From Desulfamplus sp. (GTDB taxonomy: Bacteria; Desulfobacterota; Desulfobacteria; Desulfobacterales; Desulfobacteraceae): 64,000 nucleotides of DNA. Numbering within the stretch: position 1 is the first letter of the stretch; each line of letters starts with the position of its first letter. Made by a program: the position numbers and the translations under genes. The notes under the pieces were generated by a model. It made no database searches. It had not been told where the DNA came from and worked only from the letters and a program-made list of their open reading frames with translations. This document shows positions 3,337-45,787 of the stretch, one piece after another. The stretch covers positions 1 to 64,000 of the forward strand of contig JADFZJ010000005.1 of assembly GCA_015232555.1 (NCBI GenBank). Direction: 5' to 3'.

Positions 3337-3407
3337 TTTTAGTGGGCTTATAATGATTGTTCGTAAGGCAATTCAGAAAAAGGATTGCTTTGAACTGCTA
3401 AGTGTTT

Positions 3408-3436: not shown

Positions 3437-3466
3437 GCCTATTATTCTAAGAAAACAAAGGGACTT

Positions 3467-7282: not shown

Positions 7283-7888
7283 ATGGGACAGATAAACGAA
7301 AAACATGTGTTGGATAGAAAATTTTTAGAATTTTGGGGGAACATGTTTCTTAATATTGCCAAAGGACAGGAGCATATTGAGCAAATATCTTCTGTTATGA
7401 ACATGGATTCCATTACCAACATGGATTTTATGAACTTTAAAGAGATGGCAAGAATGTTCAGACAGAGTTATGGACTGCCCTTAGATGAGTCAGGCAAAAA
7501 GGAGTCTGAAAAACCTAATCTTAATGTAGATGGGACAGAAACATTGAAACTGAATGAATCCCTTGAGGCGTTTCAGTCATCTTTTACAAAATATGTAACT
7601 ATATGGGGCTGGATTCCCAAGAAAACTCATGATGAGCTAAAACAGAGTTATGAGAGCCTTCAGCAAGAGTATAATATCTTGAAAAAAGATTATGATAACT
7701 TAAAACAGAAATCAGATATTCAAGAGGAGATCATATCGCAGTTACGAGATATCCTCAATGCAAAGGGGATGGGGTCTGTTGAGCTTTTTCAGCATATTCA
7801 GAATCTAACCCGTAAACAGACAGATGAGGTACAAAATTTAATACAGAATCTACAAAATATTTTTAAAATCAGGGATAATAAAAGTTAA
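7283..7888 (+). CDS. Coiled-coil protein of the PHA cluster (phasin-like candidate)
   Basis: I do not recognise a named family with certainty. The 201-residue soluble protein has an N-terminal amphipathic part (FLEFWGNMFLNIAKGQEHIEQ), a Met/Asn/Asp-rich middle and a long heptad-rich coiled coil at about 115-160. There is no signal peptide. FWGNMFLNIAKGQ and the Trp-rich WGWIPKKTH recall PhaE and granule-associated proteins. It precedes phaE by 126 bp on the same strand, so a role as granule surface protein or PHA synthase accessory is inferred from context only. It could be a regulator instead. Confidence 0.55.
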   Translation: MGQINEKHVLDRKFLEFWGNMFLNIAKGQEHIEQISSVMNMDSITNMDFMNFKEMARMFRQSYGLPLDESGKKESEKPNLNVDGTETLKLNESLEAFQSSFTKYVTIWGWIPKKTHDELKQSYESLQQEYNILKKDYDNLKQKSDIQEEIISQLRDILNAKGMGSVELFQHIQNLTRKQTDEVQNLIQNLQNIFKIRDNKS

Positions 7889-8014
7889 TATTGGGGAGAT
7901 ATTAGAAAATCAAATTGGGATTATCCTTTTAAAAGAGACAAAAAATCATAGGCAATAAGATCGATAAGAAAGTCTGTAACATAAAAAATGAGGGCATAAA
8001 AATAGGAGGTGTGT

Positions 8015-24330: not shown

Positions 24331-24936
24331 TTATTGCATAGAGCAGCAGTCAACCGCCGCATCAAAACCTAAATTAAAAGCCTTTATATTCATATCAGCA
24401 AATCCCTTTTTGGTTCTAAGTTTTATAGCCTCTTCTACTGTCTCACGAGTAAGAGGAAGAACATTTGATTGAACCAAAGCACCCACCAGCACAATATTGA
24501 GCGTCATTGAGCTTCCAGCCTCTTTGGCAAGTTTCATGGCATCAAATGCAATAAGAGCTGGAGTTCTTTGGCGGATAAGAGAGACCATATCATCAATCTC
24601 AGGATAGATCCCTTTTCCAATTGCCACAGTAAATGGTGGAACAGGAGAGAGGCTTGTGATGACTTTTGTGTTTGAGTTACATCTATTCATTGCACGAAGT
24701 GTCTCAGAAGGTTCAAAACCCAAAAGAACATCAGCCTCGCCATCAGAAATAATGGTACTTTGTGCATCGCCAAATATAATTGCAGACTCAACAACTCCGC
24801 CTCGCTGTGCCATTCCATGAATTTCACTCATACGCACAGGCACACCAGCTAAAAGTGCTGCCTCTCCAAGCACTTTGGAGGCTAATAGATTTCCCTGCCC
24901 TCCAACTGCTACAATAATCAATCTTTTAGTATCCAT
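24331..24936 (-). CDS. iorB: Indolepyruvate:ferredoxin oxidoreductase, beta subunit
   Basis: IorB is the gamma-type (POR_N/catalytic) partner of IorA in the ferredoxin-linked oxidation of aryl-2-oxoacids to aryl-acetyl-CoA, a route of aromatic amino acid breakdown in anaerobes. The signature VAVGGQGNLLASKVLGEAAL opens the protein, followed by EIHGMAQRGGVVES and the LLGFEPSET block. At 201 residues it is normal. It follows iorA by 21 bp on the same strand, so the two subunits form one operon. Confidence 0.92.
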   Translation of the reverse strand: MDTKRLIIVAVGGQGNLLASKVLGEAALLAGVPVRMSEIHGMAQRGGVVESAIIFGDAQSTIISDGEADVLLGFEPSETLRAMNRCNSNTKVITSLSPVPPFTVAIGKGIYPEIDDMVSLIRQRTPALIAFDAMKLAKEAGSSMTLNIVLVGALVQSNVLPLTRETVEEAIKLRTKKGFADMNIKAFNLGFDAAVDCCSMQ

Positions 24937-24957
24937 ATTTTATAAAATCCTTTTGAT

Positions 24958-26991
24958 TTACTCTCTGTTTTTCAACGGCATAATGGCATTTTCAGGGCAT
25001 ATCTGGGCACAGACAGCACAGCCGACACAAGTATCAGCATCAATTTTTACACGACCTTTTTCAATATAAAAAGATGGGCAGGCAATCGTGTCAATGCAGT
25101 CTCTGTGATCTACACACTTAGCTGTAACATGAAATGGTCTTGGTTTTAAAATTTTGATGCTTTTGGCAAATAGAGCACATGGCTCTTGAGAGATGATAAC
25201 TGAGACACCTTTGAACGCAAGAGCCTCTTTAATCGCTTCAATGCTCTTTCTAACCTTAAATGGCTTTATAATAGTAATATGCTCAACGCCAATTGCCCTT
25301 ACCAAATTTTCTATTGAGATAGATTTGTATCCTTCAAAATTCATGCGAGTCATATCAACCCCTGGATTTGGCTGATGTCCTGTCATAGCTGTAATTCCAT
25401 TATCCAATATCACCAATGTAAAATTGTGGTTATTGAAAACAGCATTTACAAGACCAGTAATGCCAGAGTGAAAAAATGTAGAATCTCCGATAAAGGAGAC
25501 AACTTTATGGTCAGTTGCCTTTGAAAAACCGCAGGAGCTGCTGACAGATGCACCCATGCAGATTACAAAATCTCCAGTTGAAAGAGGCGGAAGAAATCCA
25601 AGCGTGTAACAGCCAATATCTGAAGGATAGATAACATCCATACCCTCAGCAGCCTTTTTAATCTCATAGAATGTAGCCCTATGTGAACAGCCAGAACAGA
25701 GATTTGGTGGACGCTGCGGAATATCTGGTATCCCTTTTGTATCTACTGGTTTAACAGGTGTATAATCAGTCTTACAATTTCCTGCTTGAGAAGAGTTTGT
25801 CCTAAAATAATCAATACCAAAGAAAGAGGCGATTTTTTGTCTTACCATTGCAGGGTCAAACTCATAGAGCCTTGAGAATAGCGTATCTTGGTCTGCTGGT
25901 AAGAGACACCCGTCTGTCTGCTCGCTTGAAGCAGAGACACAAGGAGGGGCAACCTCATCAACATTTTTCCCTTTTATCGGAATTACAATCCCAGCCTCTT
26001 GTGCAAACGCTTTTACAGCCTCCTCCATAAACGGCTCGCCCTCTTCAATCACAAGAATCTTTTCGCACTCTTTTGCAAACGCTTTGATAAGATTTCCCGG
26101 CATTGGGTTTGAAAAGCCGATACGCAAAATCTTAGTTTTATCTTGAATGGCTAAATCCTTTACAGCATCTGAGGCATAAAGAAAACTTACGCCGTTGCAG
26201 ATAATTCCAAACTTCCCCTTGTCTGTTTGTGTAGTTGTGCACCTGCAAGCAGTATTGCTGTTACAAGAGCTTTTTGAGTCCACAATAAAATTATGAATTG
26301 AGGACTCTGACAGTTCAGAGGCTTTTTTAAGATTTGCAAGAAGTTTGACATGAAGTTTACGAGATACTGCAGGCACAGTTACATAGCTCATTGGGTCCCG
26401 TTCAAAAATGCCCTTTGTCTTTCTCTCTCGAATTTTACCTATTTTTACAAACGCAGTTGAGTGGTTGATTCTTGTTGTGGTTCTTAGAATAACCGGCTCT
26501 TGCAAAATCTCTGAAAGCTCAAACGCTGCAATAGTCATCTCTTTTGCTTCACTAACAGAAGATGGCTCAAGCATGGGAAGCCCTGCAAGTTTAGCGTAAT
26601 AACGGTTATCTTGCTCGTTCTGACTTGAAAACATAGCTGGATCATCGGCTGTTAGAATCACCATGCCGGCTTTTACTCCAATGTAAGCTAACGTCATTAA
26701 AGGGTCTGCTGCAACATTAAGCCCAACATGTTTCATCATGCACATTGTTCTCAATCCTGAATTTGCCGCTGCTGCTGCAACCTCCATCGCAACTTTTTCG
26801 TTTGTGCTGTATTCAAAATAGAGGTCTGTCTCTTTGGAAATCTGAAAGAGATTTAAAGATAACTCGGAAGATGGTGTTCCAGGATAAGTTGTAGCAAAGG
26901 CAACTCCAGCTTCAATTGCACCTCTTGCAATTGCTTCGTTACCTAAAAGCATTATCTCTTCACCTGTTTTGTCGATCAATAGTTTATGCAT
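24958..26991 (-). CDS. iorA: Indolepyruvate:ferredoxin oxidoreductase, alpha subunit
   Basis: IorA binds thiamine diphosphate and Fe-S clusters. The N-terminal pyrimidine-binding part shows TYPGTPSSELS and NEKVAMEVAAAAA. The TPP domain has FCSGCSH-like LCSGCSHRATF, DIGCYTLG, and GDSTFFHSGITGLVNAV with ILDNGITAMTGHQPNPG. The C-terminus has CVDHRDCIDTIACP and a ferredoxin motif CVGCAVCAQICPENAI. At 677 residues it is longer than many homologues, with extra sequence around residues 330-410. The upstream 152-bp gap separates it from the megasynthase on the same strand. Confidence 0.93.
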   Translation of the reverse strand: MHKLLIDKTGEEIMLLGNEAIARGAIEAGVAFATTYPGTPSSELSLNLFQISKETDLYFEYSTNEKVAMEVAAAAANSGLRTMCMMKHVGLNVAADPLMTLAYIGVKAGMVILTADDPAMFSSQNEQDNRYYAKLAGLPMLEPSSVSEAKEMTIAAFELSEILQEPVILRTTTRINHSTAFVKIGKIRERKTKGIFERDPMSYVTVPAVSRKLHVKLLANLKKASELSESSIHNFIVDSKSSCNSNTACRCTTTQTDKGKFGIICNGVSFLYASDAVKDLAIQDKTKILRIGFSNPMPGNLIKAFAKECEKILVIEEGEPFMEEAVKAFAQEAGIVIPIKGKNVDEVAPPCVSASSEQTDGCLLPADQDTLFSRLYEFDPAMVRQKIASFFGIDYFRTNSSQAGNCKTDYTPVKPVDTKGIPDIPQRPPNLCSGCSHRATFYEIKKAAEGMDVIYPSDIGCYTLGFLPPLSTGDFVICMGASVSSSCGFSKATDHKVVSFIGDSTFFHSGITGLVNAVFNNHNFTLVILDNGITAMTGHQPNPGVDMTRMNFEGYKSISIENLVRAIGVEHITIIKPFKVRKSIEAIKEALAFKGVSVIISQEPCALFAKSIKILKPRPFHVTAKCVDHRDCIDTIACPSFYIEKGRVKIDADTCVGCAVCAQICPENAIMPLKNRE

Positions 26992-27143: not shown

Positions 27144-30100
27144 TTAAAAAGCGATTGTAAGAAGAGATTGTATACCATCAATTCTCATATTATAAGGTAG
27201 TCGATTAAGTTTCACCATCTCAAATCCAACAAGCTCCATCAGATAATTTCCATCTTCATCAATAAGATCAATGTTGAATGTGTCTGTCTCACTGTCAGAA
27301 GCTGTACGGGTTGTGATGCACAAATATTCTCTATCTTTTTGCGATCTGTCAAAGAATTTCAGGCTTTTAATTTTATACGGCAGAACAATATAGTTGTCAG
27401 TTAAAAACTCAAAAACTCCGCCTGTCTGGAACATGCCGTCTAAAAGAACAACATCAGTTAAAAATTGAGGGCATGGATCGTCTGTAAAAAAGCTATCCCT
27501 GCTGCGATCAGCAATTTTTGTGATAAGATTTTTTCCATCAAAAGAGATAATATCTTCAATAGTTCTAAAAACTCCGTCCATAAAGAGCCTCTGCGGGTGG
27601 TAAATCAATCCAGTGTTTTTATCGCCTATTGGATTTGATCTTAATAGCTGAGGCACATCTCTTTTTTTCCTGATCTCTTTATTGCCCTCTATCCCTTCGC
27701 TGTTCTCTTTCTCTTTATTGCTCTCTATTACAATCTCTTTATTGCCCTCTATTACAAAATCAGATTGATAGTGGAGTTTTGGCTCTCCCATTGCAACTCC
27801 CGCACTATTTACAAATTGAGAGGTTATTTTGCAGTGGATACCATTTTTATCTTCATTTACAGAAATTTTAATATCTTTTGGTTTATTTTGGAGAAGTTTT
27901 ATTCCATAAGGTATTGAAAAATTCTTAACCTCTGAAATCCTGCCGTTTTTATGGGCTGCCATCGCTGCTTCTGCCATAGTCTCAACACCAGTTGCACCTA
28001 AAAATATTGGTGTTCCCTCCATAGCGTGATCAAGCAGAAATCTATCTTGTTCTATATCTAATCTTCTTGTAAATGCCCGATAATTAGAGCTGTTTTTTTG
28101 TGCATCTTCTAAAGAAAGAATTTCGGAATTTGAATTTAATAGAGTAACATCGCTGTCTAAAAACGGAGCGATTTTAAGGATTTTGTCTCTATCAAACGAG
28201 TGATCTAAACCAGTAATAACAACTTCTGGAGTTGTTGAATCTTCCATTTCGTCCATAAAAAACTTCACTCCAGCCTCTAACGGCAGGAATTTAAGCCCTC
28301 GCTCAGTTAAAACTTTCTGAACAGTCTCACGGGTTGCCATGCCTGCCCCGCTCCACGCTGTCCAGTCAATTATCTTGCATTTTGGCAGAGAATCTTCTCT
28401 ATCAAGACCAAGCAGAATCGCTGCCATCATCTCATTTGCAGCAGTGTAGTCAGTCTGTCCTTCATTGCCGAATTTGGCTGTTACTGAAGAAAATCCAACG
28501 TAAAATCTTACACCTTTCTCTTCAAGAGCCTCTATCACATTAAGACAGCCATAAACCTTTGTGTTAAAAACCCTCTCAAACGAATCTAAAGTTTTCTTCT
28601 CAAACGGCATACTCTCCTCAACTCCAGCAGCATGAATAACTCCATCAACATGGTAAACATCAACTGATTCAAGGGCAGATTTTATAGCGTTTTTATCTGT
28701 AACATCTGCTGCAATGTAAGAGACATAAACCCCGAATGATTTTAAAATCTCAATATTCTTGCGGGATTCCAAAGCTGATAGGATTCGGTTTGCAGCCTGT
28801 TTCAGCTCAACAGGTTTTGCCCCTTTCATAGTCAGTTTCAGCTTTTCCATTACAGTTTTTTCATCAATAGATGAAATGCTTTCAACACCAGCAATAATAT
28901 CAGAAAGAGTATCAATATTGTAAATATCGCTTCTTCCAAGGATAATTAGATTTGTCTGATATTTCTTCACAACTGCCTTGAGAATCTCAAAAGTTATTCC
29001 TCTTGCTCCGCCTGTAACAAGAATGGTGTCGCCATTTGCAATCAAGCTTTTTTGACTGAAATCCGTTTCCGTTTTGCTCAATGGGCTATCTTTTAAATGC
29101 ACAACATATTTTTCATTGTTGCGATAAGATATTTCAACTCGTGGGTCAGTTGATCTTATTTCGTCCATGAATATTTGAACAGGCTGCGATTTTAGACTGT
29201 TATTAATTTGAGCGTTATTTTTTGATGAAGTATTATCTATAGAGTTATTTAATATACTTACAACCTTAACAATGGTGTTGGGCATCTCTTTTGCAAGGCT
29301 TTTCATTATTCCGCAGATACCAGCAAAAGATGGGTTTTTATCTACTGCTGAAAACGCCGCAATAAATTTATCTTGTTGATTAAGAGAGCTAAACAGCTTT
29401 TTTACGATTATAAAGAATGATTTAACATCAAACGGCGTAATGCAGATTAATCCATCTAAATTGTTTAAACTCTCCTCTAACTGTGCTGAATTTATCTGAC
29501 GCTCAAACGGCTCTTTAAGAGTATTGCTAATCTCAACGACTTTTCCGCCGTCAGCATTGATAAAATCACCAATTCCATACGTATCATCACCAGCGACCAA
29601 AACCGTTTTTCCTGCAAAGCTCCACTTTTCTGTTATAGGCAGACCAGTTTTCCGCCATACTGGAACAAGACGATGAATATCGTGAGGCTCTTCTTTTGTG
29701 ATATTAACGCTTTTAAAATTTGGATTAAGTTGTTCGTTCTGTGTCATATTTTTATCAGAATCTTCAACAACATCACTGCTGCCTACTGGTTCAACTTTAG
29801 ACGCAATATCTGCTGATTCAACTTTAGGCACAATATCTACTGGTTCAACTTTAGATGCAACACCTGCTGGTGCAACCTTGGACGCAATATATTCTGTAAG
29901 TTTTGCGATTGTATTTAAATCTCTCAGTTTTAAATCTTCTGGAACAGGAAAACCAAAATGAGAGGCTGTGTTTGCAAAAATCTCAACCTGCTTGACTGTA
30001 TCAATTCCAAGATCAGCCTCAAGATCAAGCTCAGGATCAAGCATATCTTCGGTATATCCTGTCTGTTTGGCAATTATCCCTGTGATTACCTGCATAACCT

Positions 30101-33100
30101 GACTCTCTTGATTAACTGGTGCAGATGGCTGAGAATTAGATGAAAGAGCGGTTTTAGTCTCAGGCTCCATGGAAATTTGAATCTCTTTTTGTATGATGTT
30201 GGAAGTTCCAACTTTGGTGTCAATGTAAGCTGCAAGCCTTGCAATTGTGTTTAAATCTCTCAATTTTAAATCTTCTGGAACAGGAAAACCAAAATGAGAG
30301 GCTGTATTTGCAAAAATCTCAACCTGCTTGACAGTATCAATTCCAAGATCAGCTTCAAGGTCAAGCTCAGGATCAAGCATATCTTCGGTATATCCTGTCT
30401 GTTTAGCGATTATCTCTGTAATTACAGTCATAACGCCTTTATTTTGTTCTAACTCTACCGTAGGTGTTTTAACTATTTCTTTATTAATATGCGCTTGAAT
30501 CTCTGCTTTCTTTTGACTTACTTTAGGAGATAGATCAACTTTCAAAGGTGTAGTTTCTGCAATTAGAGCAGATCGTTCTCCTACAACGCAGAGCATATTA
30601 TCAATAATTTTCAACTCTGGCTTATTGCTTCTGCTTATTCGTTTAAGCCATGCGTTGTATGCCTCAGTGTTTACCCTCTCTTCAATCCGTCTGATAAACA
30701 AAAACGCAAAATGAGAACCAAAACCAGCAGCAAGATGAAGCCCATACTCTGCCTTTTCGCCCCGTGCTCCAGCAGAACTTCCTGAACTTATGTTAGATGT
30801 TGCAAAGTTAAGCTCTTTAAAATGTTCTGGAATCTTTACTAAATTTGCAATTGGAGGGGCTTTTCTTCGCTGCAACGCCTTTACCATTACAACATCTTCA
30901 ATTGCTGCACCAAGCGTATGACCTGTAAAGCCTTTTGTATTGGTGATGCAGATATTTTTAAGGTGGCTGCCGAATGTGTTTTTTAGTGCTGTAACTTCTG
31001 CATCTGCACTGCCTCCTCTTGCCGGCGTGTAGGTCTCATGTGACATAAACAGCAATTTATCTGCATAATCAGATTGATTTAAGTTATGCTCTTTTTCCAT
31101 CTTTGAGATAAACTTTTTCATCTGGCTTGCCATGTGCTCAACATCAATATTGAATGTGTGATACGCACTGTTTGCCATGTGTGTTCCAAGAACTACAGCC
31201 TGACCTCTCATTCCTCTTGCATGAACTTCTGACGCTTTTTCAACCACAAGCCCTACAGCACCGCAGCCTAAAATCGTGCCGTTGCGATCGCTGTCAAAAG
31301 GTTTTGCAGCTTCAGATATCCGTTTTTTCACAGTAGCAGCACCAAGTGCAAGAAATCCTGAACCAATCCACTGATTTTGTGCTGATGATGTTGCATTTTC
31401 GCCGCCGATTACAACAACCCGTTTGCAGCGTCCAAGTTTTATCCAATCTTCTGCAATTCCAACCGCTTGAGTGGTTGATGCACATGCACTGCTTACAAGC
31501 ACATTTGGTCCTTTTGCCTTTATAATCTGGGCAAGATGGGCAGAACCTAAAGGACATGCGTTGACCATAAAATTGCGATCAAATTTATATGCTCCAAAAT
31601 CGTCTCTTTTTCTCTTTCTGATGTTGAAAAACCAATCTGTAACCTGCTGTTTTACTGCTGTGTCTTTTACATTCTCCATAAGATAAAAATAGATGCTCTG
31701 GAACTCCTCATAAGGCTTTAAAAAGAGTCTGTCGTAAAAATATTTCTCCATCTCGTTGATTAAGGTCTCATTGCTTGGAAACAAAGATGTTATGATAACA
31801 CCGGTATCTTCTTGCATCACTTCAGGAAGGGCAAAACCATTAGGAATCAACTCTATAGAATCAGATTTATCAGGTTCTTGATTATTTTCCTCCCCGCCGC
31901 TGCTTTTATTAACACTAAAACCGTTATCTCCGTCATTGTAACCTTTATCTGTTCTCTTAAATCTTGACGGCGTTTTATACTGCATAACAAGCGGAATGGC
32001 TGCATCTTTTAACGCCTCAATTCCAGCAGCAACTGCCAACGCCATGCTGATATCGTATTGGGCTTTTATTCCATACTCTTCATTAAGGTTGAAATATCCA
32101 AGCTGTCCTGCAAGATGAATTACATCTTCAGTATTGGAGATTTCAACAAAACGGGCATTTCCATCTGGCTCTTTTAAAATTCTGGTTATATTTTTATCAA
32201 CAATTCTCTCTTGATCTTCTACGCTTAACGGATCGATAAAATTTCGTCCATCAAGAATCATATCAAAGTTATCTGATGAAAATACACGTCTTGCCTTGCC
32301 CGGAAGCCCTACAGATACGCCGGAAATCACAACAGCATTCTCATTTACGACTGATAAAATCTCACTCTCTACTGTTCCAGATGCAATAGAATCTAAAGCC
32401 ACTGAGATGCTGTAATCTTTAATATTGATATGTTTTAGCAGATTAACAAGAAGTTTTCGCGGTCCTATCTCTATAAAATGGGTATTGCCGCTGCCGCTAA
32501 ATACAGATTTAATTTGGTTGTTAGTATTGGTTGAAATTCCGCCTTTACCGATACTATTTACATATTCGATTGATTTTATAAACTCAACAGGAGTTGTAAT
32601 CTGTTTTGCAAGAAGAGCTTTTACCTGTTCTGCATTCTGAGGATATGGTCTTGCAGTAACGTTTGATATAACTTTTGCGAAATCGACATTATTAAATGTT
32701 ATATTTTTTAAATAGCTCTTTAGCTTTTCTGCTGCATTTCCAAAAAGCGGGGTGTGGAACGCACCAGAGAGGTTAAGACGCTTATATACAACGTTTTTAG
32801 ATGCAAGAAATTTACAGAAAATATCAATATCTTGTTCACTGCCAGATACTGCGGTCTGCCTCTCACTATTTTTATTGGTGATGTAGAGCCATGATGCGCC
32901 TGATTCTCTTATAAGTGACGCTGTCTCCTGTTCATTGCCAAACACGACCATAATTTTGCCAGGATACTCTATTGCTGCCTCTCTCATCAGATCAGAGCGT
33001 TTTATAATGAGCCTCATTGCATCGTCAAAATTGAGCATTCCGCTGCAAAAGAGTGCTGTATATTCGCCCACACTGTGACCGATAAAAAAGTCAGGATTAA

Positions 33101-36100
33101 AATTATCAGATTGAGACCCTGAACTATTTTTCTTTGGAGTGCTGCTAAGTTTATTAAAGATTGCTGCTGACGATAAAAATACAGCAGGCTGTGTGTTTTC
33201 AGTTAAGTTGAGCCTGCTGTCATCGTTAAACATGATATTTAAAAGAGAATAGCCTCTCTCTTTTACAAATATCGCCTCTCCCTGCTCCATAATCTGCCTA
33301 ATATCAGCATCTTCCTCAAATATCTCTTTCATCATGCCCGCACTTTGTGAGCCTTGACCAGATAGAAGAGCAACGAGAGTCTGTTTAGATGGTTTTACGA
33401 TTTGAGATTGGTCTGTCCTTTGTGAAGCAAGATTTTGTGAATGGCTATTTTGAGAGATATCTATAATTTCACCATCTTGAGCTTGCTGGCTATCTGATTT
33501 TCCAAGAGCTTCTGCATGTCCAAAGATCATAGCACGATTTACCATGCTTAAAACTGCATGTCCGTGATTTCCGCCGATTCCATTTACATTAAACGCAAAT
33601 CGCAAAGGGGTCTCATACTCTTTTCCCTGAATAATCGGATTTTGCAGGGTTGAGAATTTTTGATCATATTCAAAATTTGGCAGAAGAGTTCTTTGTTTAT
33701 TCATTAGAGCCATTTTTGCCAATGCAACCGCAGGGTTAGCAGATTTAAAATATCCAAACTGTGTTTTAACATTGCCAAAATGGAGATTAGGATTGTTAAG
33801 ATCAAAACATTTCTCAACAACTTGGCGTTCAATCATATCGCCCATGATGTTTGAGAAGGCAAAAAGATCAAGATATCCAACATCTTGCTTTCTTATTCCG
33901 CTTCGTCTGTAGCACTCGTTTATTGCAGATACAAAGGTTGTTTCAGACGGAGAGAGCAGGTGATCAGGAGCACTTGATTTAACGACAAAATCGCTTAATT
34001 CTCCTAAAATCTCCATGCCTGACTCTTTTGCTCTTTTTAAGGTGGTCAGAACATGAATTGCAGCACCTTCAGACATTGCATAGCCATCAGCTCTTGAGTC
34101 AAAGAATCTCGGCTCTGTCGGCGATAAAAGCCCGATTCGTTTAAATGCCATTAAAAATGCAGGATATAAATTTGCATCAACACCTCCTGCAAGTGCAAAA
34201 TCAAGCTGTTTTGAAGATATTTCTCTCATAGCATTACGAATCGCAATTACAGCAGAGGCACAAGATGCGTCCACTACATAGTTTACACCGTTAAGACCAA
34301 AATGGTTGGCAATGCGTCCTGATATTATGTTTGAGAGAAGCCCGGGCGTTGTATCTTCGTTGTTTTCAGGCAATATCTGCCGTATTGCCTCAACAAGCTC
34401 AGATGCAATAATTTTTGCTCGTTCAGAATCAATAGAGCTGCTCGTTGCAATTGTTTCAGCAAGCAGATTTTTTCTAACACGCAAAATATTTTTGCTCTGC
34501 CGCTCACCCTGAATTGTGCCAAGAATAACGCCTATTTTGTTTGACGAAACACCTGACGATGATTGTATGGCTGATGATGGTTGCGGGGCTGACGACTGAG
34601 TAAATTGTGCAAGACCTGATGAAGTTATCGCATCATCTGCTGCCTCTAAACCAAGAAGCTGTCCACGCTCTAAAGATCGCACAATTGATGGAGGCATTCT
34701 ATATTTGATGTTGTTGAACTTAAAATCTTGAATTATTCCAGCTTTAACTATCGGCAGATAGTAATGCGATTTTTTATCAAACTCAGCATACGCTTCATTA
34801 TCAAAACGCTCCTTTGGAATCGGGGAAAATTGCTTTTTTCCTGATTGTAGATTCTGCCAGAACTGTTCAGAACCTTGTCCGCCGGGCAGGCATACGCCAA
34901 TTCCAGCAATTACGATTCTATCATCATTAAAATCGTAATTTGGATCAGCAAATATTCTGCGGGGAAGAGGCTCGTATAATTTACCTCGAAACTCTTCAAC
35001 AACAAGATGGTAGTTGATTCCGCCAAAACCATAAGAGCTTACAGCAGCCTTTCTGGTCTTGTTTTCTGGAGTAACCCAAGTTTCAGGACGCTCAATTATA
35101 TAAAGATTTGTGTTCGAGAGATCGTGGTTGTGGGAGAGCTTTTCAAAATTTGCATTTGGGGGCAGAACACCCTTTTGAACAGCAAGCAGAGCCTTTACAA
35201 GTCCAGCAGCACCAGCACCGCCAAGCAGATGACCAATTTGAGATTTAACAGAACTTATACCTATCTTGAAGCCTTGAACAAAATCGTAAATATCGGGTTT
35301 ATTTGCATTATTAGCGATATTTTCATCTTTTAAAGAACTTTTAACCACATAAACATCTTTAAGAGTCTGAAGCTCTGCCTGATCGCCCATGATTGTAGAT
35401 GTTCCATGAGCCTCAATAAATCCGATATCCTGCGGTTTAACTCTTCCAGCCATGCGTTCATAACATCGCTCTAACGCCAAAATCTGCCCTTTAACATTCG
35501 GGGCTGCAATTGCCTTGCCTCTGCCGTCAGAACTCCCGCCGATTCCTTTAATCACGCCGATAATATTGTCGTTATCTCGTAAAGCATCTTTTACCCTTTT
35601 TAGAACAAAGACAGCAGCACCTTCTCCTAAAATAAAGCCGTCTGCCCGCTCATCAAACGGAAATGACCCTTTTGCAGATAACGCACCCATCTTGCAGAAT
35701 CCAATAAATGATTCAGGTGCAAGGTGGGTGTTTACGCCTCCAACCACAACATGATCGCAATCTCCAGAAAGAAGTTCTTTAACAGCAGCATCTATTGCAC
35801 TAAATGAAGAGGCACAAGCAGCATCAACAACATAATTGACACCTCTAATTCCAAGATGTTTTGCAACTCTTGAGGCTTCAATGTTTAAAAGCATACCATG
35901 AACAGGATCGTAACCACAGTGCCGTCCCTCCATGCCGGCTTGTAAATCTGCTGTAAGTGCTGCTTTCTCCTCTTGGCTCAATTTATTGAACTCTTCAGTT
36001 TTTCTAAGCATGGAGAGAACTTCTGGAAAGTGGTATTTAAATTGTAACTCGTTTCCCAACTCATTGCCAAGGCAGGTCGCTATAATTACCGCTGTCCGTT

Positions 36101-38873
36101 CAGGATTTACAACCACCTTTTTTTGTGGAGTTTTAGTCTGTTTATCCTCTAAATTAGAAAAATCTGAACTATGTTCTTTATGTGCTGGAATACCAAAACG
36201 GAGATTTTCATCTAAATAACCCGCATTTTCAACCGCCTGATATGCAGCCATAAGAAGTATTTGCTGGCTTCGAGAAAGATGTGCAGCTTTTTGCTCATCA
36301 TATCCAAAGCGATCGCTATCAAACACAAAATCCTTTATATAACCAGCAAGCATTGTGTAGGCTTTATCTTCTGCTGTTTTATCTGGATCGTAGTATAAAT
36401 CTTTTCTTATTCTGCTATCTTCCATCTCTCGTATTGAGTAGCGTTTTGCAAGGATATTTTCCCAAAGCTCTTCTGGATTTTTTGCATCAGGCAGAATACA
36501 CCCCATACCAATTACAGCGATTTCGTCATTAATGCTCTTTGTTTCAGAAGATAAAACTTCAAGTCGGTTGAGATTACTGAACAATTTTTCTTTAACACTG
36601 AATAAGGTGGTTGATGCAGCGTGCTCAGGCGTGACACGATGGGTAGGTGTGAAATTTGTCCCTACAACATGTGGAATATCAAAAAACATTCCATGAATCT
36701 GATCAATTGTGGTTGTATCTTTGAAAAACGCAAGAGCATCGCCAGAGAGAAAATTTCCCCTTGTTTTATGCTCCTCTCCTTCAAACCATCTATAATTTTC
36801 TTCACCCGGATTTTTAAAATCAGGCAGAAAGCCTTTTGAACCAATCAGAAGAGAGCCGATATTATTCTTCTCAAATGCTCGTTTACGATCTTCGAGCTTT
36901 TCGCCCTTTTTGATCATCTCTTTTTCTTTCTGGATCATTTTTTTCGCAAATTCAGTTGGTGCAGTTCTTGAAGCAAGACCGACGCTGTTTCCAATAACCA
37001 TTGTCTCATCTTCTTCGCATAAAATTGTCTGATACTGCTCTTTTATGCTTTTGGTCTCAACAATTTCTTTAGAAAAAAGATATGCGGTTCCAACCTGAAT
37101 GCCGATCTTAACTCCTTTTGCAGCAAGACAAGATGCAATACCAGAGATAAAACATGATGCAAAACAGGTTGATATTCCGCCTGCAAACACAAGGCTTAAC
37201 TTTGAAAGAAGATTGTTATTAATATCAGCAGTACCGCCGTTTTGAGTTGAATCTGCAGAATTTAGAGAAGCTGACGCTGATCGCTCTTTTATTTTGGCAA
37301 TTGCAGCTTCCCACAGAACAAGACTTGAAAGAGAGCCGACATGACCTCCAGCCTCTCTGCCTTCAAATATAAAACGGGTGCAGCCGCCTTTAATTGCGTT
37401 TTCCATCATTGAGATTGACGGAGTGTGAAGATAGGTTTTAGTGCCAGCCTTTTCAAGCTCAATAACTTGAGACGGAATACCGCCTGCAAATAGTGCAAAA
37501 GGAGCTTTATATTTTCTTACAATTTCAAGATGTTTTTCAACTGCTGGATTAAATGCCTCAATTCCAACAAGCCCTGCACCAAAAACAGGAACTTTTTCAG
37601 CACCTCTTTTTATCATATTCTCTGCAAGAGCTGGTGGAAGGCTTCCTACAGCAAAAAAAGGCAAAGCACCAGCCTCTAAAACTTTTGCTGCGAAATCTGG
37701 ATTATCACTTACATTTGCCATTGGTCCTTGAATCAGAGGAAGGCGTGTGCCGTGCTCTTTTGCCATTGGAGAGTCAACTCTCATCGGGTCAAATGAGTCA
37801 ACATAGTTAAGCTGCTCTCCAATATCTTTAAAAAATTCTGAAATCATATCTTTTAGATTTGGAGAGATAAGGGCAAAGTTTTTGGCAAAAAATCCATCTT
37901 GTCCAATAAAAAATAGTGACTGCACTGCTGGAGCATCTGATTTATCAAGAGGGGTGATATGTTCTCCAATCTCTTTATAGATTAGAGCGGCACAATTTTC
38001 TTTAGAGTTACTGTTTTTAGTGGTGTTTGAAGTGCTTTCAATTAAATTGTCATCAATTAACTTATCATCAACACCATTAGCAGAGATAAGAATCGCTTTA
38101 TCTTTAAGCTCTTTGGCTATTTTAGTGCCAAGTTTTGCAAACACGCGAAATATATTTCTGCTGTCAGTTGTGATCTCAATAGAATCGCTCTCATCAAGGC
38201 TTGACAATAGAGTTCTAAAATTTTCAGACAGAGGAGACTCTTTTGCAAGCCATACTTGACTGTCCAAAACAACTCCGCTCACTCCAGCAGAAAACATGCC
38301 TGATGCAGTGTTTCTGCCCACACCGCCATGAATAAAAACAGGCAGATCGCTGTTTTTTAGATACCACTGCATCAGTATAAATGATGAGTAGTTTGAGACC
38401 CTTCCGCCAGCCTCGTTGCCGCGGAGAATGAGTGCGTGCGGGTTAATTGCTTTGATGCGATCGTTTATGTTGATCTCACGAACTTCAAGAATGATTTTTG
38501 AGTGGGGGAAGTTTTTATTAATTGATTTAACTGATTCAAAAACTTTATTGCGGACAGATTCGTTATCATCTGCCTTATCATCAGCGTTTATATTATCTAA
38601 TGATATTACGATGCTGTCTAATCTTGCTGCATTAAGCTCTTTGATGTCGTAAATAAGCTCTAAATTTGGATCGACAAGCCTTAAACCAAATAAAATATCT
38701 GCACTGATAAGAGCTTTAATCCCCTCAATTATCTCGTAATGAGATAGAAATTCAGTATCAAATACGGGCAGACCACCTGCGTTGAAAACAGCTTTAAAGA
38801 AGTTAAGAGAAAATACTTTTGACGGGTTATATACTATTAATGGAAGTCGTGAAGTTAGTATTCTTGTAAACAT
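27144..38873 (-). CDS. Single-chain PUFA-synthase-like megasynthase (NMO-NMO-KS-KS-AT-KS-ACP-ACP-KR-DH)
   Basis: A 3909-residue iterative lipid or polyketide synthase. From the N-terminus (approximate residues): two FMN-type nitronate-monooxygenase/PfaD-like domains (1-240 and 370-700; LPLIQGPMANVSDNP, FEGREAGGHVGS); KS1 780-1300 (Cys in DAACASS ~1019, His in EAHGTST and IGHLLGGAG); KS2 1315-1800, which keeps DASCASAV but has lost both His; an acyltransferase 1825-2130 (GHSVGEY ~1934, AFHTPL); KS3 2175-2720 (SSACAST, SHETYT, TGHTLGAA); two nearly identical carrier domains ~2800-2990 with LGIDTVKQ; a ketoreductase 3275-3560 (TGGARGIT, FSSVTAKFGN, TDYTAAN); and a hot-dog dehydratase 3600-3909 (LLDHAMEGTP). 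GGAGA precedes the ATG. No phosphopantetheinyl transferase lies nearby. The order recalls Pfa synthases with the trans enoyl reductase PfaD fused at the front. The product is unknown. Confidence 0.9.
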   Translation of the reverse strand: MFTRILTSRLPLIVYNPSKVFSLNFFKAVFNAGGLPVFDTEFLSHYEIIEGIKALISADILFGLRLVDPNLELIYDIKELNAARLDSIVISLDNINADDKADDNESVRNKVFESVKSINKNFPHSKIILEVREININDRIKAINPHALILRGNEAGGRVSNYSSFILMQWYLKNSDLPVFIHGGVGRNTASGMFSAGVSGVVLDSQVWLAKESPLSENFRTLLSSLDESDSIEITTDSRNIFRVFAKLGTKIAKELKDKAILISANGVDDKLIDDNLIESTSNTTKNSNSKENCAALIYKEIGEHITPLDKSDAPAVQSLFFIGQDGFFAKNFALISPNLKDMISEFFKDIGEQLNYVDSFDPMRVDSPMAKEHGTRLPLIQGPMANVSDNPDFAAKVLEAGALPFFAVGSLPPALAENMIKRGAEKVPVFGAGLVGIEAFNPAVEKHLEIVRKYKAPFALFAGGIPSQVIELEKAGTKTYLHTPSISMMENAIKGGCTRFIFEGREAGGHVGSLSSLVLWEAAIAKIKERSASASLNSADSTQNGGTADINNNLLSKLSLVFAGGISTCFASCFISGIASCLAAKGVKIGIQVGTAYLFSKEIVETKSIKEQYQTILCEEDETMVIGNSVGLASRTAPTEFAKKMIQKEKEMIKKGEKLEDRKRAFEKNNIGSLLIGSKGFLPDFKNPGEENYRWFEGEEHKTRGNFLSGDALAFFKDTTTIDQIHGMFFDIPHVVGTNFTPTHRVTPEHAASTTLFSVKEKLFSNLNRLEVLSSETKSINDEIAVIGMGCILPDAKNPEELWENILAKRYSIREMEDSRIRKDLYYDPDKTAEDKAYTMLAGYIKDFVFDSDRFGYDEQKAAHLSRSQQILLMAAYQAVENAGYLDENLRFGIPAHKEHSSDFSNLEDKQTKTPQKKVVVNPERTAVIIATCLGNELGNELQFKYHFPEVLSMLRKTEEFNKLSQEEKAALTADLQAGMEGRHCGYDPVHGMLLNIEASRVAKHLGIRGVNYVVDAACASSFSAIDAAVKELLSGDCDHVVVGGVNTHLAPESFIGFCKMGALSAKGSFPFDERADGFILGEGAAVFVLKRVKDALRDNDNIIGVIKGIGGSSDGRGKAIAAPNVKGQILALERCYERMAGRVKPQDIGFIEAHGTSTIMGDQAELQTLKDVYVVKSSLKDENIANNANKPDIYDFVQGFKIGISSVKSQIGHLLGGAGAAGLVKALLAVQKGVLPPNANFEKLSHNHDLSNTNLYIIERPETWVTPENKTRKAAVSSYGFGGINYHLVVEEFRGKLYEPLPRRIFADPNYDFNDDRIVIAGIGVCLPGGQGSEQFWQNLQSGKKQFSPIPKERFDNEAYAEFDKKSHYYLPIVKAGIIQDFKFNNIKYRMPPSIVRSLERGQLLGLEAADDAITSSGLAQFTQSSAPQPSSAIQSSSGVSSNKIGVILGTIQGERQSKNILRVRKNLLAETIATSSSIDSERAKIIASELVEAIRQILPENNEDTTPGLLSNIISGRIANHFGLNGVNYVVDASCASAVIAIRNAMREISSKQLDFALAGGVDANLYPAFLMAFKRIGLLSPTEPRFFDSRADGYAMSEGAAIHVLTTLKRAKESGMEILGELSDFVVKSSAPDHLLSPSETTFVSAINECYRRSGIRKQDVGYLDLFAFSNIMGDMIERQVVEKCFDLNNPNLHFGNVKTQFGYFKSANPAVALAKMALMNKQRTLLPNFEYDQKFSTLQNPIIQGKEYETPLRFAFNVNGIGGNHGHAVLSMVNRAMIFGHAEALGKSDSQQAQDGEIIDISQNSHSQNLASQRTDQSQIVKPSKQTLVALLSGQGSQSAGMMKEIFEEDADIRQIMEQGEAIFVKERGYSLLNIMFNDDSRLNLTENTQPAVFLSSAAIFNKLSSTPKKNSSGSQSDNFNPDFFIGHSVGEYTALFCSGMLNFDDAMRLIIKRSDLMREAAIEYPGKIMVVFGNEQETASLIRESGASWLYITNKNSERQTAVSGSEQDIDIFCKFLASKNVVYKRLNLSGAFHTPLFGNAAEKLKSYLKNITFNNVDFAKVISNVTARPYPQNAEQVKALLAKQITTPVEFIKSIEYVNSIGKGGISTNTNNQIKSVFSGSGNTHFIEIGPRKLLVNLLKHINIKDYSISVALDSIASGTVESEILSVVNENAVVISGVSVGLPGKARRVFSSDNFDMILDGRNFIDPLSVEDQERIVDKNITRILKEPDGNARFVEISNTEDVIHLAGQLGYFNLNEEYGIKAQYDISMALAVAAGIEALKDAAIPLVMQYKTPSRFKRTDKGYNDGDNGFSVNKSSGGEENNQEPDKSDSIELIPNGFALPEVMQEDTGVIITSLFPSNETLINEMEKYFYDRLFLKPYEEFQSIYFYLMENVKDTAVKQQVTDWFFNIRKRKRDDFGAYKFDRNFMVNACPLGSAHLAQIIKAKGPNVLVSSACASTTQAVGIAEDWIKLGRCKRVVVIGGENATSSAQNQWIGSGFLALGAATVKKRISEAAKPFDSDRNGTILGCGAVGLVVEKASEVHARGMRGQAVVLGTHMANSAYHTFNIDVEHMASQMKKFISKMEKEHNLNQSDYADKLLFMSHETYTPARGGSADAEVTALKNTFGSHLKNICITNTKGFTGHTLGAAIEDVVMVKALQRRKAPPIANLVKIPEHFKELNFATSNISSGSSAGARGEKAEYGLHLAAGFGSHFAFLFIRRIEERVNTEAYNAWLKRISRSNKPELKIIDNMLCVVGERSALIAETTPLKVDLSPKVSQKKAEIQAHINKEIVKTPTVELEQNKGVMTVITEIIAKQTGYTEDMLDPELDLEADLGIDTVKQVEIFANTASHFGFPVPEDLKLRDLNTIARLAAYIDTKVGTSNIIQKEIQISMEPETKTALSSNSQPSAPVNQESQVMQVITGIIAKQTGYTEDMLDPELDLEADLGIDTVKQVEIFANTASHFGFPVPEDLKLRDLNTIAKLTEYIASKVAPAGVASKVEPVDIVPKVESADIASKVEPVGSSDVVEDSDKNMTQNEQLNPNFKSVNITKEEPHDIHRLVPVWRKTGLPITEKWSFAGKTVLVAGDDTYGIGDFINADGGKVVEISNTLKEPFERQINSAQLEESLNNLDGLICITPFDVKSFFIIVKKLFSSLNQQDKFIAAFSAVDKNPSFAGICGIMKSLAKEMPNTIVKVVSILNNSIDNTSSKNNAQINNSLKSQPVQIFMDEIRSTDPRVEISYRNNEKYVVHLKDSPLSKTETDFSQKSLIANGDTILVTGGARGITFEILKAVVKKYQTNLIILGRSDIYNIDTLSDIIAGVESISSIDEKTVMEKLKLTMKGAKPVELKQAANRILSALESRKNIEILKSFGVYVSYIAADVTDKNAIKSALESVDVYHVDGVIHAAGVEESMPFEKKTLDSFERVFNTKVYGCLNVIEALEEKGVRFYVGFSSVTAKFGNEGQTDYTAANEMMAAILLGLDREDSLPKCKIIDWTAWSGAGMATRETVQKVLTERGLKFLPLEAGVKFFMDEMEDSTTPEVVITGLDHSFDRDKILKIAPFLDSDVTLLNSNSEILSLEDAQKNSSNYRAFTRRLDIEQDRFLLDHAMEGTPIFLGATGVETMAEAAMAAHKNGRISEVKNFSIPYGIKLLQNKPKDIKISVNEDKNGIHCKITSQFVNSAGVAMGEPKLHYQSDFVIEGNKEIVIESNKEKENSEGIEGNKEIRKKRDVPQLLRSNPIGDKNTGLIYHPQRLFMDGVFRTIEDIISFDGKNLITKIADRSRDSFFTDDPCPQFLTDVVLLDGMFQTGGVFEFLTDNYIVLPYKIKSLKFFDRSQKDREYLCITTRTASDSETDTFNIDLIDEDGNYLMELVGFEMVKLNRLPYNMRIDGIQSLLTIAF
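29885..30430 (-). repeat. Duplicated carrier-domain segment inside the megasynthase
   Basis: Two direct DNA copies (about 29885-30085 and 30225-30430) encode the two carrier domains and are nearly identical even at silent positions over roughly 190 bp. This points to recent duplication or ongoing gene conversion. Confidence 0.85.
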
Positions 38874-39279: not shown

Positions 39280-39319
39280 AAACAAGAATAAAATTTGCGT
39301 GATGATTTTATTCTTGTTT
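39280..39319. promoter_or_regulatory. 15-bp inverted repeat between divergent genes
   Basis: AAACAAGAATAAAAT (39280-39294) and its exact complement (39305-39319) flank a 10-bp loop in the 489-bp AT-rich gap between the megasynthase and the clostripain-like gene. It lies 44 bp before the protease ATG, so it could be an operator or a leader hairpin. The T-run is poor, so a terminator is less likely. I see no gene in the rest of 38874-39362. Confidence 0.5.
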
Positions 39320-39362
39320 GTGCCTGTCAGGGCATGGTCATTTTATAAGGAGAAGCAAAATA

Positions 39363-41888: not shown

Positions 41889-41929
41889 CCAAATGGTTTG
41901 AGTGCAGCCTGTTTGTGTGTTTATTAAAA

Positions 41930-41957
41930 GTAGAGACGCACGGCGGTGCGTCTCTAC
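41930..41957. repeat. Perfect 12-bp palindrome GTAGAGACGCAC with 4-bp loop
   Basis: GTAGAGACGCAC, loop GGCG, then the exact complement. It lies 42 bp after the clostripain-like gene and may terminate its mRNA. From memory, palindromes beginning GTAGAGACG recur between genes in cyanobacteria and other phyla, so it may be a mobile palindromic unit. Confidence 0.7.
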
Positions 41958-42061
41958 AGATTGGATTGAATCTAAAAAGGCTACACTCAAATGATTTAAT
42001 ATAATTTCAATTTTAGTTACTCAAAAATTTACAATACAAACACTCAAAAGGAGATCGATTT

Positions 42062-44887: not shown

Positions 44888-45787
44888 TTAATGTATTGGA
44901 CTTTTCAGCAGGCGGCTGATTTTCATATCCTTATCTTTCCAAAGAGTATTAATCCATGTGCAAAATCTCTCTCTGAATTGAGCATCATTAAAATAATCTC
45001 CTTTAATATCTGAAGTTATTGGAAGTATGTCAACATCAACTATAACTCTCCGTATTCTTCCTGATATAAATCCCCAGAATGTGTCTGCCCCGTCTGGATA
45101 GACAATAGTCACATTAATAATTTTGTGCATACAATCTCCCATAGCACTTATTACAAATGCCACCCCTCCAGCTTTAGGGGTTAGCAGGTGGGTGTATGGA
45201 GATTTCTGTCTTTTATGTTTTTCTGGTTTAAAACGGGTGCCTTCAACAAAGTTGACCACACAAACAGGAATTGTTTTGAATTTTTCACACGCCTTTTTAG
45301 TGCTCTCAAGGTCTTTTCCCTTCAAATGGGGGTTTTTTTCAAGAAACTTGCTTGAATAACGTCTCATAAACGGGAAATCCAGTGCCCACCATGCAAGCCC
45401 AAGGATAGGAACCCATATCAGCTCTTTTTTCAGAAAGAATTTGAGCATCGGCACTTTACCCATGAACATCTTTTGAAGTACTAAAATATCTACCCATGAC
45501 TGATGATTACAAAGAAGCAGATACCACTCTTCTTTTTCCAACCGTTCTGCCCCTTTAAATGTCCACTCAATCCTGTTGAAAAGATCAGTATTAAAGGCAT
45601 TGATTCCAACCCATCTCATAGCAATATAAATAAGCATACTATCATAGTATTTTTTTAAAGAGGGAACTGGGAAAATTAATTTAACTAATGCTACACAAAA
45701 CAGAAGAGAGCAAAGCACTATTGTATTAATAAGATATAATAAAAACGACAAACTCCCTTTTACAAATCTTGGTAAAAAATCAAGCAT
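44888..45787 (-). CDS. Lysophospholipid acyltransferase (PlsC/YihG-like)
   Basis: An inner-membrane acyltransferase that adds a fatty acyl chain to lysophosphatidic acid or a related lipid. A hydrophobic N-terminus (SFLLYLINTIVLCSLLFCVALV) is followed by the catalytic NHQSWVD (HX4D) and the substrate block VNFVEGTRF, the pattern of the YihG branch. At 299 residues it fits. It is single on the minus strand and converges with the papain-type peptidase gene. A short G6/C6 stem in the 75-bp gap between them is a weak terminator candidate. Confidence 0.85.
   Translation of the reverse strand: MLDFLPRFVKGSLSFLLYLINTIVLCSLLFCVALVKLIFPVPSLKKYYDSMLIYIAMRWVGINAFNTDLFNRIEWTFKGAERLEKEEWYLLLCNHQSWVDILVLQKMFMGKVPMLKFFLKKELIWVPILGLAWWALDFPFMRRYSSKFLEKNPHLKGKDLESTKKACEKFKTIPVCVVNFVEGTRFKPEKHKRQKSPYTHLLTPKAGGVAFVISAMGDCMHKIINVTIVYPDGADTFWGFISGRIRRVIVDVDILPITSDIKGDYFNDAQFRERFCTWINTLWKDKDMKISRLLKSPIH

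What the first reader, a model, noticed from the sequence alone, without database searches (positions are those of the whole stretch)
27144..38873. All-in-one PUFA-synthase-like megasynthase of 3909 residues
Pfa systems usually split into several proteins, with the FMN enoyl reductase PfaD separate. Here two PfaD/NMO-like domains lead a chain with three KS, AT, two ACP, KR and DH. The chain may make an unusual reduced or polyunsaturated lipid in an anaerobe.
Basis: partly seen in the sequence, partly recalled or inferred. Interest (0 to 1): 0.8.

Follow-up and report, generated by a model that had tools for sequence, protein, structure and literature searches.

The report
One-protein fatty acid synthase, threonine carriers
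A giant single protein in sulfate-reducing bacteria appears to have replaced the usual set of separate enzymes that make membrane fatty acids, and its built-in carriers have threonine at the spot where the carrying arm is attached, a change that disables the E. coli carrier.

Summary
A 3909-residue ORF (27144-38873, minus strand) carries two FMN-reductase-type domains, three ketosynthases, AT, two ACPs, KR and a PKS-type dehydratase. It is not a PUFA synthase by the tests tried: it scores under the PfaA cut-off, the reductase resembles FabK rather than PfaD, and no FabA-type dehydratase/isomerase was found. Its family is conserved in the host's family (20 of 21 genomes at least 90% complete). 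There FabF and FabZ over cut-off are missing (0 of 35 each), against 19 and 17 of 23 in sister families. In five family genomes read, fabF and fabG are gone from the acpP locus; one relative keeps a 57-residue fabF remnant. I conclude that it is the cell's core type I fatty acid synthase (inferred, not assayed). Shulse and Allen (2011) suggested this for one relative, D. autotrophicum. Not found in the literature searched: the tandem ACPs have threonine at the phosphopantetheine site (79 of 79 in 27 homologues; 209 of 213 readable sites in a wider set), where S36T disables E. coli ACP. Related one-chain synthases occur in Spirochaetes, Elusimicrobia and Heimdallarchaeota. The most testable novelty is a threonine-linked carrier.

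The parts
27144..38873 (-). Megasynthase gene, 3909 aa: ER1-ER2-KS1-KS2-AT-KS3-ACP-ACP-psiKR-KR-DH
38079..38873 (-). ER1 (res. 1-265): degenerate FMN-reductase-like barrel; His of the xEAGGH motif replaced by R/K/Q/N/L/M in 25 of 25 proteins aligned
   Evidence: NMO 24.8 bits, under cut-off 28; model
36639..37766 (-). ER2 (res. 370-745): FabK/NMO-type enoyl reductase with the motif GREAGGH, His511 invariant in 25 of 25
34974..36521 (-). KS1 (res. 785-1300): condensing ketosynthase, Cys1020-His1156-His1215 invariant in 25 of 25
33504..34940 (-). KS2 (res. 1312-1790): ketosynthase fold without the two catalytic His (25 of 25), Cys1538 kept in 24 of 25
32424..33401 (-). AT (res. 1825-2150): malonyl-transferase-like, Ser1934
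   Evidence: (fabD model 188.1 bits, cut-off 260.9)
30594..32336 (-). KS3 (res. 2180-2760): second intact ketosynthase, Cys2464-His2612-His2652 invariant in 25 of 25; at the position of the 'CLF' of Type R clusters
30204..30461 (-). ACP1 with Thr2847 at the phosphopantetheine site (EADLGIDTVKQVE)
29868..30125 (-). ACP2 with Thr2959 at the same site
29064..29786 (-). Region before the KR (res. 3030-3270), taken as structural pseudo-KR (name inferred)
   Evidence: own profile, conserved in homologues
28194..29051 (-). KR (res. 3275-3560), ketoreductase; only the nucleotide-binding motif was compared
27159..28106 (-). DH (res. 3590-3905): PKS-type dehydratase, His3616 and Asp3812 invariant in 25 of 25
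   Evidence: PKS_DH_N and PS-DH over cut-off
44888..45787 (-). PlsC-like acyltransferase, 57-74% identical to the acyltransferase near the megasynthase in 13 relatives
   Evidence: PF01553

Best explanation
It is the core fatty acid synthase of the cell: a self-contained, iterative type I synthase that has taken over from the dissociated type II system (FASII). Shown here by sequence: domains for all steps (condensation, malonyl loading, ketoreduction, dehydration, enoyl reduction) lie on one chain, with the KS1, KS3, AT, DH and ER2 residues conserved; FabF and FabZ over cut-off are missing from the genome and its family; fabF and fabG are missing from their locus in five family genomes read. 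Inferred: the AT loads malonyl units onto the tandem ACPs; KS1 elongates; KR, DH and ER2 reduce fully; ER1 and KS2 are non-catalytic partners (pseudo-dimer halves or scaffold); KS3 is a second active ketosynthase, perhaps for priming or late elongation; the acyl chain passes to a PlsC-like acyltransferase. The carrier arm should be phosphopantetheine on threonine, installed by a dedicated Sfp-type transferase, whose gene lies beside the synthase in 8 relatives.
For: Own genome: the KS search finds no free-standing FabF/FabB, only KSs in frames of 1,082 aa or more and three weak matches of 20-30 bits in 282-450-aa frames. Relatives set: FabZ over cut-off 0 of 35 and FabF 0 of 35 in the family, 17 of 23 and 19 of 23 outside. 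Controls: type I FAS C. glutamicum and four archaea silent for both, nine FASII bacteria ring. Order sample of 211: 13 own-family genomes and 8 genomes of family f18 have KS3 and neither FabF nor FabZ; of 175 KS3-negative genomes 168 have at least one. Locus: fabG-acpP-fabF-rpiB in 8 of 12 other-family genomes read, acpP-rpiB without fabG and fabF in 5 of 5 own-family genomes read; G048 keeps 57 aa of fabF and a broken fabG. Active sites. PlsC-like neighbour. PPTases: 2-3 in all 21 family genomes at least 90% complete, 0-1 in 14 of 17 relatives without the megasynthase.
Against: No assay. FabH (34 of 35) and free AcpP (32 of 35; Ser in the own copy) are kept in the family. 11 of 35 family genomes (not the own one) have FabF-like matches at E<=1e-60 under the cut-off, most in frames of about 400 aa, and G028 has two sub-cut-off FabZ matches (104 and 110 bits); I take them for other pathways, untested. 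10 of 35 family genomes show no N-terminal match; nine are 52-89% complete, but G031 is 100% complete (7% contamination, 1270 contigs). 14 of 36 KS3-positive genomes of the order have both FabF and FabZ. G047, without KS3, also lacks fabF in the locus. The own genome has a second Pfa-like set (C28, C73). PPTase counts do not always fit: megasynthase carriers G038 and G051 have one. The window has no adjacent PPTase, though the genome has two. FabD and FabI were not searched.
Confidence: 0.82

Rival explanations
1. It is a PUFA/secondary-lipid synthase, making an unusual lipid on top of normal fatty acid synthesis.
For: Closest NCBIfam model is PfaA; 14 of 36 KS3-positive genomes keep both FabF and FabZ.
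Against: Own family lacks FabF/FabZ over cut-off, so no known system would make the normal fatty acids; PfaA cut-off not reached; no FabA-type DH (PF07977) in the protein, whereas the same genome's C28/C73 Pfa-like proteins have it.
Confidence: 0.07
2. The second Pfa-like set of the genome (C28: KS-AT-ACP2 and KR-FabA; C73: KS-KS-FabA), with serine ACPs, is the core synthase, and the megasynthase is accessory.
For: It has FabA-like dehydratases and serine carriers; HRM2 has a true PfaA over cut-off (1417.1 vs 1010.1 bits).
Against: Large frames with FabA/Z-like stretches also occur in FASII genomes of sister families, so they do not track FASII loss; G007 (same genus, 98% complete) has the megasynthase but no FabZ-model match at E<=0.001. 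That last point rests on a threshold.
Confidence: 0.07
3. The threonine ACPs are not phosphopantetheinylated; the kept free AcpP (Ser) carries the chain in trans and the tandem domains are only docking platforms.
For: E. coli ACP(S36T) cannot be modified and is not functional (PMC3340395, passages); AcpP is kept in 32 of 35 family genomes.
Against: Two to six tandem copies in uncut proteins with an almost invariant motif exactly around the site; a PPTase gene beside the synthase in 8 loci and an extra PPTase in the family; a Heimdallarchaeal homologue (L173) mixes Ser and Thr ACPs in one array. AcpP would be needed anyway for lipid A and lipoate (recalled).
Confidence: 0.3
4. FASII is present but too divergent, or lost from the assemblies, and cells scavenge fatty acids.
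For: Many family genomes are metagenome bins; 11 of 35 have sub-cut-off FabF-like proteins.
Against: G024 (2 contigs; chromosome length that of D. autotrophicum HRM2), G023 and G033 (1 contig each) also have neither over cut-off (G023 has five sub-cut-off FabF-like proteins, best 371 bits); the acpP locus is there but lacks fabF in G024 and G023.
Confidence: 0.04

Closest known systems
Type S (Desulfobacterium autotrophicum HRM2) and Type R (Elusimicrobium, Roseiflexus, Solibacter, Koribacter) Pfa-like clusters of Shulse and Allen 2011 (PMC3098273, abstract and passages seen)
   Same: Type R is described as KS-MAT-CLF-ACP(3-6)-KR followed by a PPTase gene, the same core order as KS1-AT-KS3-ACPn-KR. 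The authors already suggested Type S as 'core' FAS because fabA and fabZ are missing.
   Different: The passages seen do not mention tandem ER, a third KS or family-wide FASII loss, and the words serine and threonine do not occur in the text. HRM2 also has a true PfaA (L067), so which gene is 'Type S' could not be settled from the text.
PUFA synthases (PfaABCD; thraustochytrid PFA1-3)
   Same: Tandem ACPs, KS-AT-ACPn-KR order, FMN TIM-barrel enoyl reductase; in thraustochytrids two ERs pair as a heterodimer (PMC13311796, abstract and section 2.5).
   Different: One chain, FabK-like ER2 with a degenerate partner, PKS-type DH instead of FabA-type DH/isomerase, extra intact KS3, Thr for Ser in ACPs.
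FabK enoyl-ACP reductases
   Same: Best structural match of the ER1-ER2 model (9pl0_B, E 1.7e-18, TM 0.82 by target) and only NCBIfam match of the N-terminus.
   Different: Score far below the FabK cut-off (89.2 vs 453.1); fused tandem with a degenerate copy.
Type I FAS of mycobacteria/corynebacteria and fungi (recalled)
   Same: Would work like it: one-chain FAS in place of FASII, FMN-type ER (recalled).
   Different: Domain order and domain set differ from the recalled AT-ER-DH-MPT-ACP-KR-KS order; the parts here resemble Pfa/PKS domains.

Membership tests
PUFA (Pfa) synthase | PfaA model TIGR02813 over curated cut-off | tested here: not met
   723.6 vs 1010.1 bits
PUFA (Pfa) synthase | FabA-type dehydratase/isomerase (PF07977) | tested here: not met
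   Not among the Pfam matches of P0001; DH is PKS_DH_N + PS-DH
PUFA (Pfa) synthase | PfaD-family enoyl reductase | tested here: not met
   Only TIGR03151 FabK matches residues 1-760; PfaD structures from rank 39
PUFA (Pfa) synthase | Tandem ACPs after KS-AT, followed by KR | tested here: met
PUFA (Pfa) synthase | Makes long-chain PUFA | not testable with these tools
   no product data
Acyl carrier protein (PP-binding) | ACP family match | tested here: met
   PF00550 two stretches, 50.5 bits
Acyl carrier protein (PP-binding) | Serine at the phosphopantetheine site | tested here: not met
   Thr in 79 of 79 copies of 27 proteins; the broken protein of G033 (L059) showed no motif in its largest frame and is not counted
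Type I fatty acid synthase (functional class) | All FAS activities on one chain | tested here: met
   KS, AT, ACP, KR, DH and ER domains; KS1, KS3, AT, DH and ER2 catalytic residues conserved; KR catalytic residues not examined
Type I fatty acid synthase (functional class) | Host lacks FASII elongation enzymes | tested here: met
   FabF 0 of 35, FabZ 0 of 35 over cut-off in the family; sub-cut-off FabF-like proteins in 11 of 35, none in the own genome; FabD, FabI not searched
Type I fatty acid synthase (functional class) | Essential; makes membrane fatty acids | not testable with these tools
   needs genetics and biochemistry
Shulse-Allen Type R/S secondary lipid synthase | KS-MAT-CLF(KS3)-ACPn-KR core with PPTase gene downstream | tested here: inconclusive
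   Core order present, with KS2 and ERs added; PPTase adjacent in 8 loci but not in the window
Shulse-Allen Type R/S secondary lipid synthase | Non-catalytic CLF after the MAT (that a CLF is non-catalytic is recalled) | tested here: not met
   KS3 keeps Cys-His-His in 25 of 25; KS2, before the AT, is the one that lost both His
Shulse-Allen Type R/S secondary lipid synthase | Same gene as the HRM2 Type S entry | tested here: inconclusive
   HRM2 has both a megasynthase (L037) and a PfaA (L067); no locus tag found in the text

The most novel reading that the evidence does not exclude
A class of one-chain fatty acid synthases, spread over Desulfobacterota, Spirochaetes, Elusimicrobia and Heimdallarchaeota, carries its growing chains on phosphopantetheine attached to threonine, through a matching transferase, and serves as the only fatty acid synthase in whole bacterial families.
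Probability: 0.55. Interest if true: 0.88.

Novelty: new variant of a known kind. Interest (0 to 1): 0.8.

Why it matters
Fatty acid synthesis by FASII is treated as near-universal in bacteria and is an antibiotic target (recalled). A major anaerobic family of sulfate reducers seems to have replaced its elongation enzymes with one giant protein of a different lineage. The carriers break what looks like a fixed rule, serine at the phosphopantetheine site, at a position where Ser-to-Thr inactivates E. coli ACP (PMC3340395). Both claims can be tested with one deletion and one mass spectrum. A relative with a full set of FAS domains in Heimdallarchaeota may also bear on where archaeal and eukaryotic fatty acid synthesis came from.

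Tried and rejected
PUFA or special-lipid synthase as main reading: rejected on the missing FabA-type DH, missing PfaD match and the FASII loss. PlsX loss as a marker: no PlsX match at E<=1e-40 in any of the 58 genomes, FASII ones included, so it says nothing. IorAB (24331-26991) as part of the system: no match in the flanks of the relatives read. An ACP pattern was wrong and found none; corrected. Herlemann 2009 on Elusimicrobium not held. Not done: FabD, FabI, LpxA and lipoate searches (genome search cap reached), prediction of DH isomerisation, structures of KS2/KS3.

The Fisher p-value (8e-14) ignores shared ancestry and should not be read as independent evidence. That count used FabF at E<=1e-125 and FabZ at E<=1e-28; G028, whose two FabZ matches were under the curated cut-off, was set to FabZ-negative, while the other sub-cut-off FabZ and FabF genomes were left as positive (169 of 211 over the FabZ cut-off, 160 of 211 over the FabF cut-off by the tallies). 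If G028 is counted positive, 20 instead of 21 KS3-positive genomes lack both. The sample was limited to genomes at least 85% complete; the rows without a match are only partly listed, so I cannot tell whether further f18 genomes are among them, nor name all 7 KS3-negative genomes that lack both.

Full report
WHAT IS THERE. The ORF of the finding is real: 27144-38873 on the minus strand, 3909 aa, ATG to TAA. Pfam places two NMO stretches, KS x3, AT, PP-binding x2, KR and a PKS-type dehydratase. Domain order by residue: ER1 1-265, ER2 370-745, KS1 785-1300, KS2 1312-1790, AT 1825-2150, KS3 2180-2760, ACPs around 2805-2890 and 2917-3002, pseudo-KR 3030-3270, KR 3275-3560, DH 3590-3905 (boundaries mine).

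ACTIVE SITES. In an alignment of 25 full-length proteins the KS1 triad Cys1020-His1156-His1215, AT Ser1934, the KS3 triad Cys2464-His2612-His2652, ER2 His511 and DH His3616/Asp3812 are invariant. KS2 keeps Cys1538 in 24 of 25 and lacks both histidines in 25 of 25 (the exception for Cys, L052, aligns poorly there). ER1 has R, K, Q, N, L or M where the catalytic His of the xEAGGH motif should be; the role of that His in FabK and PfaD is given in PMC13311796 (abstract and section 2.5 seen). KR catalytic residues were not examined. An AlphaFold2 model of residues 1-750 from 30 related sequences (mean pLDDT 87.1, pTM 0.90) has strand-helix repeats consistent with two barrels; its best PDB match is FabK, with PfaD from rank 39. 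The N-terminus matches only FabK in NCBIfam.

FAMILY AND HOST. Named relatives place the host in or near Desulfamplus, family Desulfobacteraceae (L099 and L100 are nearest in the KS3 tree). The N-terminal 760 aa match in 34 of 58 genomes of the relatives set at E<=0.001, some weakly. Within the host's family 25 of 35 genomes match, and 20 of 21 that are at least 90% complete; the exception is G031.

LOSS OF FASII. With curated cut-offs FabZ is found in 0 of 35 family genomes and 17 of 23 others, FabF in 0 of 35 and 19 of 23. In 14 control genomes both searches ring in nine FASII bacteria and are silent in C. glutamicum and the four archaea. Against this, 11 of 35 family genomes have FabF-like matches at E<=1e-60 under the cut-off (best 379 bits against 493.75; most in frames of about 400 aa), and G028 has two FabZ matches under the cut-off; I take these for other pathways, untested. 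The own genome has none. In a sample of 211 genomes of the order at least 85% complete, 36 have the KS3 domain; 21 of these (13 own family, 8 of family f18) have neither FabF nor FabZ, 14 have both and 1 (G048) has FabZ only. Of 175 without KS3, 168 have at least one. FabH is kept in 34 of 35 family genomes and AcpP in 32 of 35. The acpP locus shows how FASII went: of 12 other-family genomes read, 8 have fabG-acpP-fabF-rpiB; G044 has fabG-acpP-fabF without rpiB beside it, G054 lacks a fabG match, G047 (no KS3) lacks fabF, and G048 has remnants only. The five own-family genomes read have acpP-rpiB-glyA with fabG and fabF missing; G051 (f18) has fabG-acpP-rpiB. G048, which carries the megasynthase, keeps 57 residues of FabF (72% identical) and fabG pieces in two frames. 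Loss of fabF there is thus not unique to megasynthase carriers.

THREONINE CARRIERS. All 79 ACP copies read in 27 homologues have LGIDT instead of LGIDS (the broken G033 protein, L059, is not counted). In the 80 loci, chosen by KS3 and not by ACP, the residue is Thr 209 times, Ser 3 (L164, L173), Ala 1 (L170), with 6 ACP matches lacking a readable motif, over 75 loci with a motif; these loci overlap in part with the 27. Pfa-like proteins of family genomes have Ser (L060, L064, L066, L067, L068). In E. coli, ACP(S36T) is used as a negative control that cannot be modified and does not support growth (PMC3340395, passages); a sorghum paper cites loss of function for spinach Ser38 changed to Thr or Cys (PMC9310384, passage). 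Literature searches for threonine carriers gave no such natural family; the library holds open-licence PMC papers only. A PPTase gene lies beside the synthase in 8 loci, directly downstream in 7 of them, HRM2 included. PPTase counts are 2-3 in all 21 family genomes at least 90% complete, 0-1 in 14 of 17 relatives without the megasynthase, and 1, 1, 2, 2, 2, 3 in the six other-family carriers, so the link is not strict.

NEIGHBOURHOOD. A PlsC-like acyltransferase sits near the megasynthase in 13 relatives, and the window's own copy (44888-45787) is 57-74% identical to them. A sigma-54-activator-type gene clusters in 24 loci (the cluster includes a few further activators), none found in the part of the window compared (20-50 kb). 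IorAB next door is not conserved in the flanks read.

WIDER DISTRIBUTION. Profiles made from the 25 proteins find ER1-ER2-KS1-KS2-AT-KS3-ACPn-KR-DH in Spirochaetes (L142, L147, L150; L137 cut by its contig end), ER1-ER2-KS1-AT-KS3-ACP-KR-DH on one open frame of 3,519-3,604 aa in Heimdallarchaeota or Asgard bins (L156, L157, L165, L173), and KS1-AT-KS3-ACPn-KR-DH in Elusimicrobia (e.g. L155, L158, L161). FabF over cut-off occurs in 2 of 26 genomes behind a sample of those loci; eight of the 26 are archaea, where none is expected, four are Desulfobacterota, completeness is not given, 9 more have matches under the cut-off, and one Spirochaete match (453 bits) is close to it. The KS3 tree (quick method) puts Desulfobacter apart from the rest of its family, which suggests replacement of one version by another, as expected of a gene that cannot simply be lost; this is inference. 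A KS1 tree of 25 rows separates the megasynthases from the serine-ACP Pfa-like proteins; two rows have very long branches.

WHAT IT DOES. Best reading: core type I FAS (confidence 0.82). It works like a type I FAS and is not a member of the Pfa family by the tests tried. Closest in print is the catalogue of Shulse and Allen 2011 (PMC3098273; abstract and passages), who noted missing fabA/fabZ in HRM2 and suggested its Type S cluster as core synthase. The text seen does not tell which of two HRM2 genes Type S is. Other papers: PMC2702500 (abstract and passages), PMC4882568, PMC13291983, PMC7472256 and PMC13343975 (passages); the rest of the listings were seen as listings only. PMC7472256 already reports PKS-like KS domains in a Heimdallarchaeota bin with PUFA as nearest hits. 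Searches for type I FAS or PUFA-type synthases in these sulfate reducers and for archaeal FAS/PKS returned nothing closer.

Noticed in passing
L156:4175-14902, L157:4133-14944, L165:4160-14917, L173:4694-15250: Heimdallarchaeota/Asgard contigs encode a one-chain protein with ER-ER-KS-AT-KS-ACP-KR-DH, i.e. a full set of FAS domains in an archaeon; L173 mixes Ser and Thr ACPs.
   Followed up: partly
L092:6752-6922 and 7399-7586: G048: truncated fabF and broken fabG beside acpP in a genome that carries the megasynthase; a fossil of FASII loss.
   Followed up: partly
L064 (G000 C28), L065 (G000 C73): The host genome has a second, Pfa-like set with serine ACPs and FabA-type dehydratases, on two contigs.
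   Followed up: partly
G000 C51:51780-74507 (L085, L086): Five strong KS domains in large frames: a modular PKS-type cluster in the host genome.
   Followed up: no
L059: In G033 (one contig) the megasynthase reads in several broken frames; decay or sequencing error not distinguished.
   Followed up: no
window 24331-26991: IorAB-like ferredoxin oxidoreductase pair directly downstream of the megasynthase, same strand; not found there in the relatives read.
   Followed up: partly
window 39318-44812: Two large secreted cysteine-peptidase-like proteins (by eye) lie between the synthase and the acyltransferase.
   Followed up: no
window 8009-10320: By eye, a PhaE/PhaC-like polyhydroxyalkanoate synthase pair.
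   Followed up: no
L050, L051, L055 (genus g7, Desulfobacter): Desulfobacter megasynthases group outside the rest of their family in the KS3 tree (L051, L055, L145 shown), as if one version had replaced another.
   Followed up: partly
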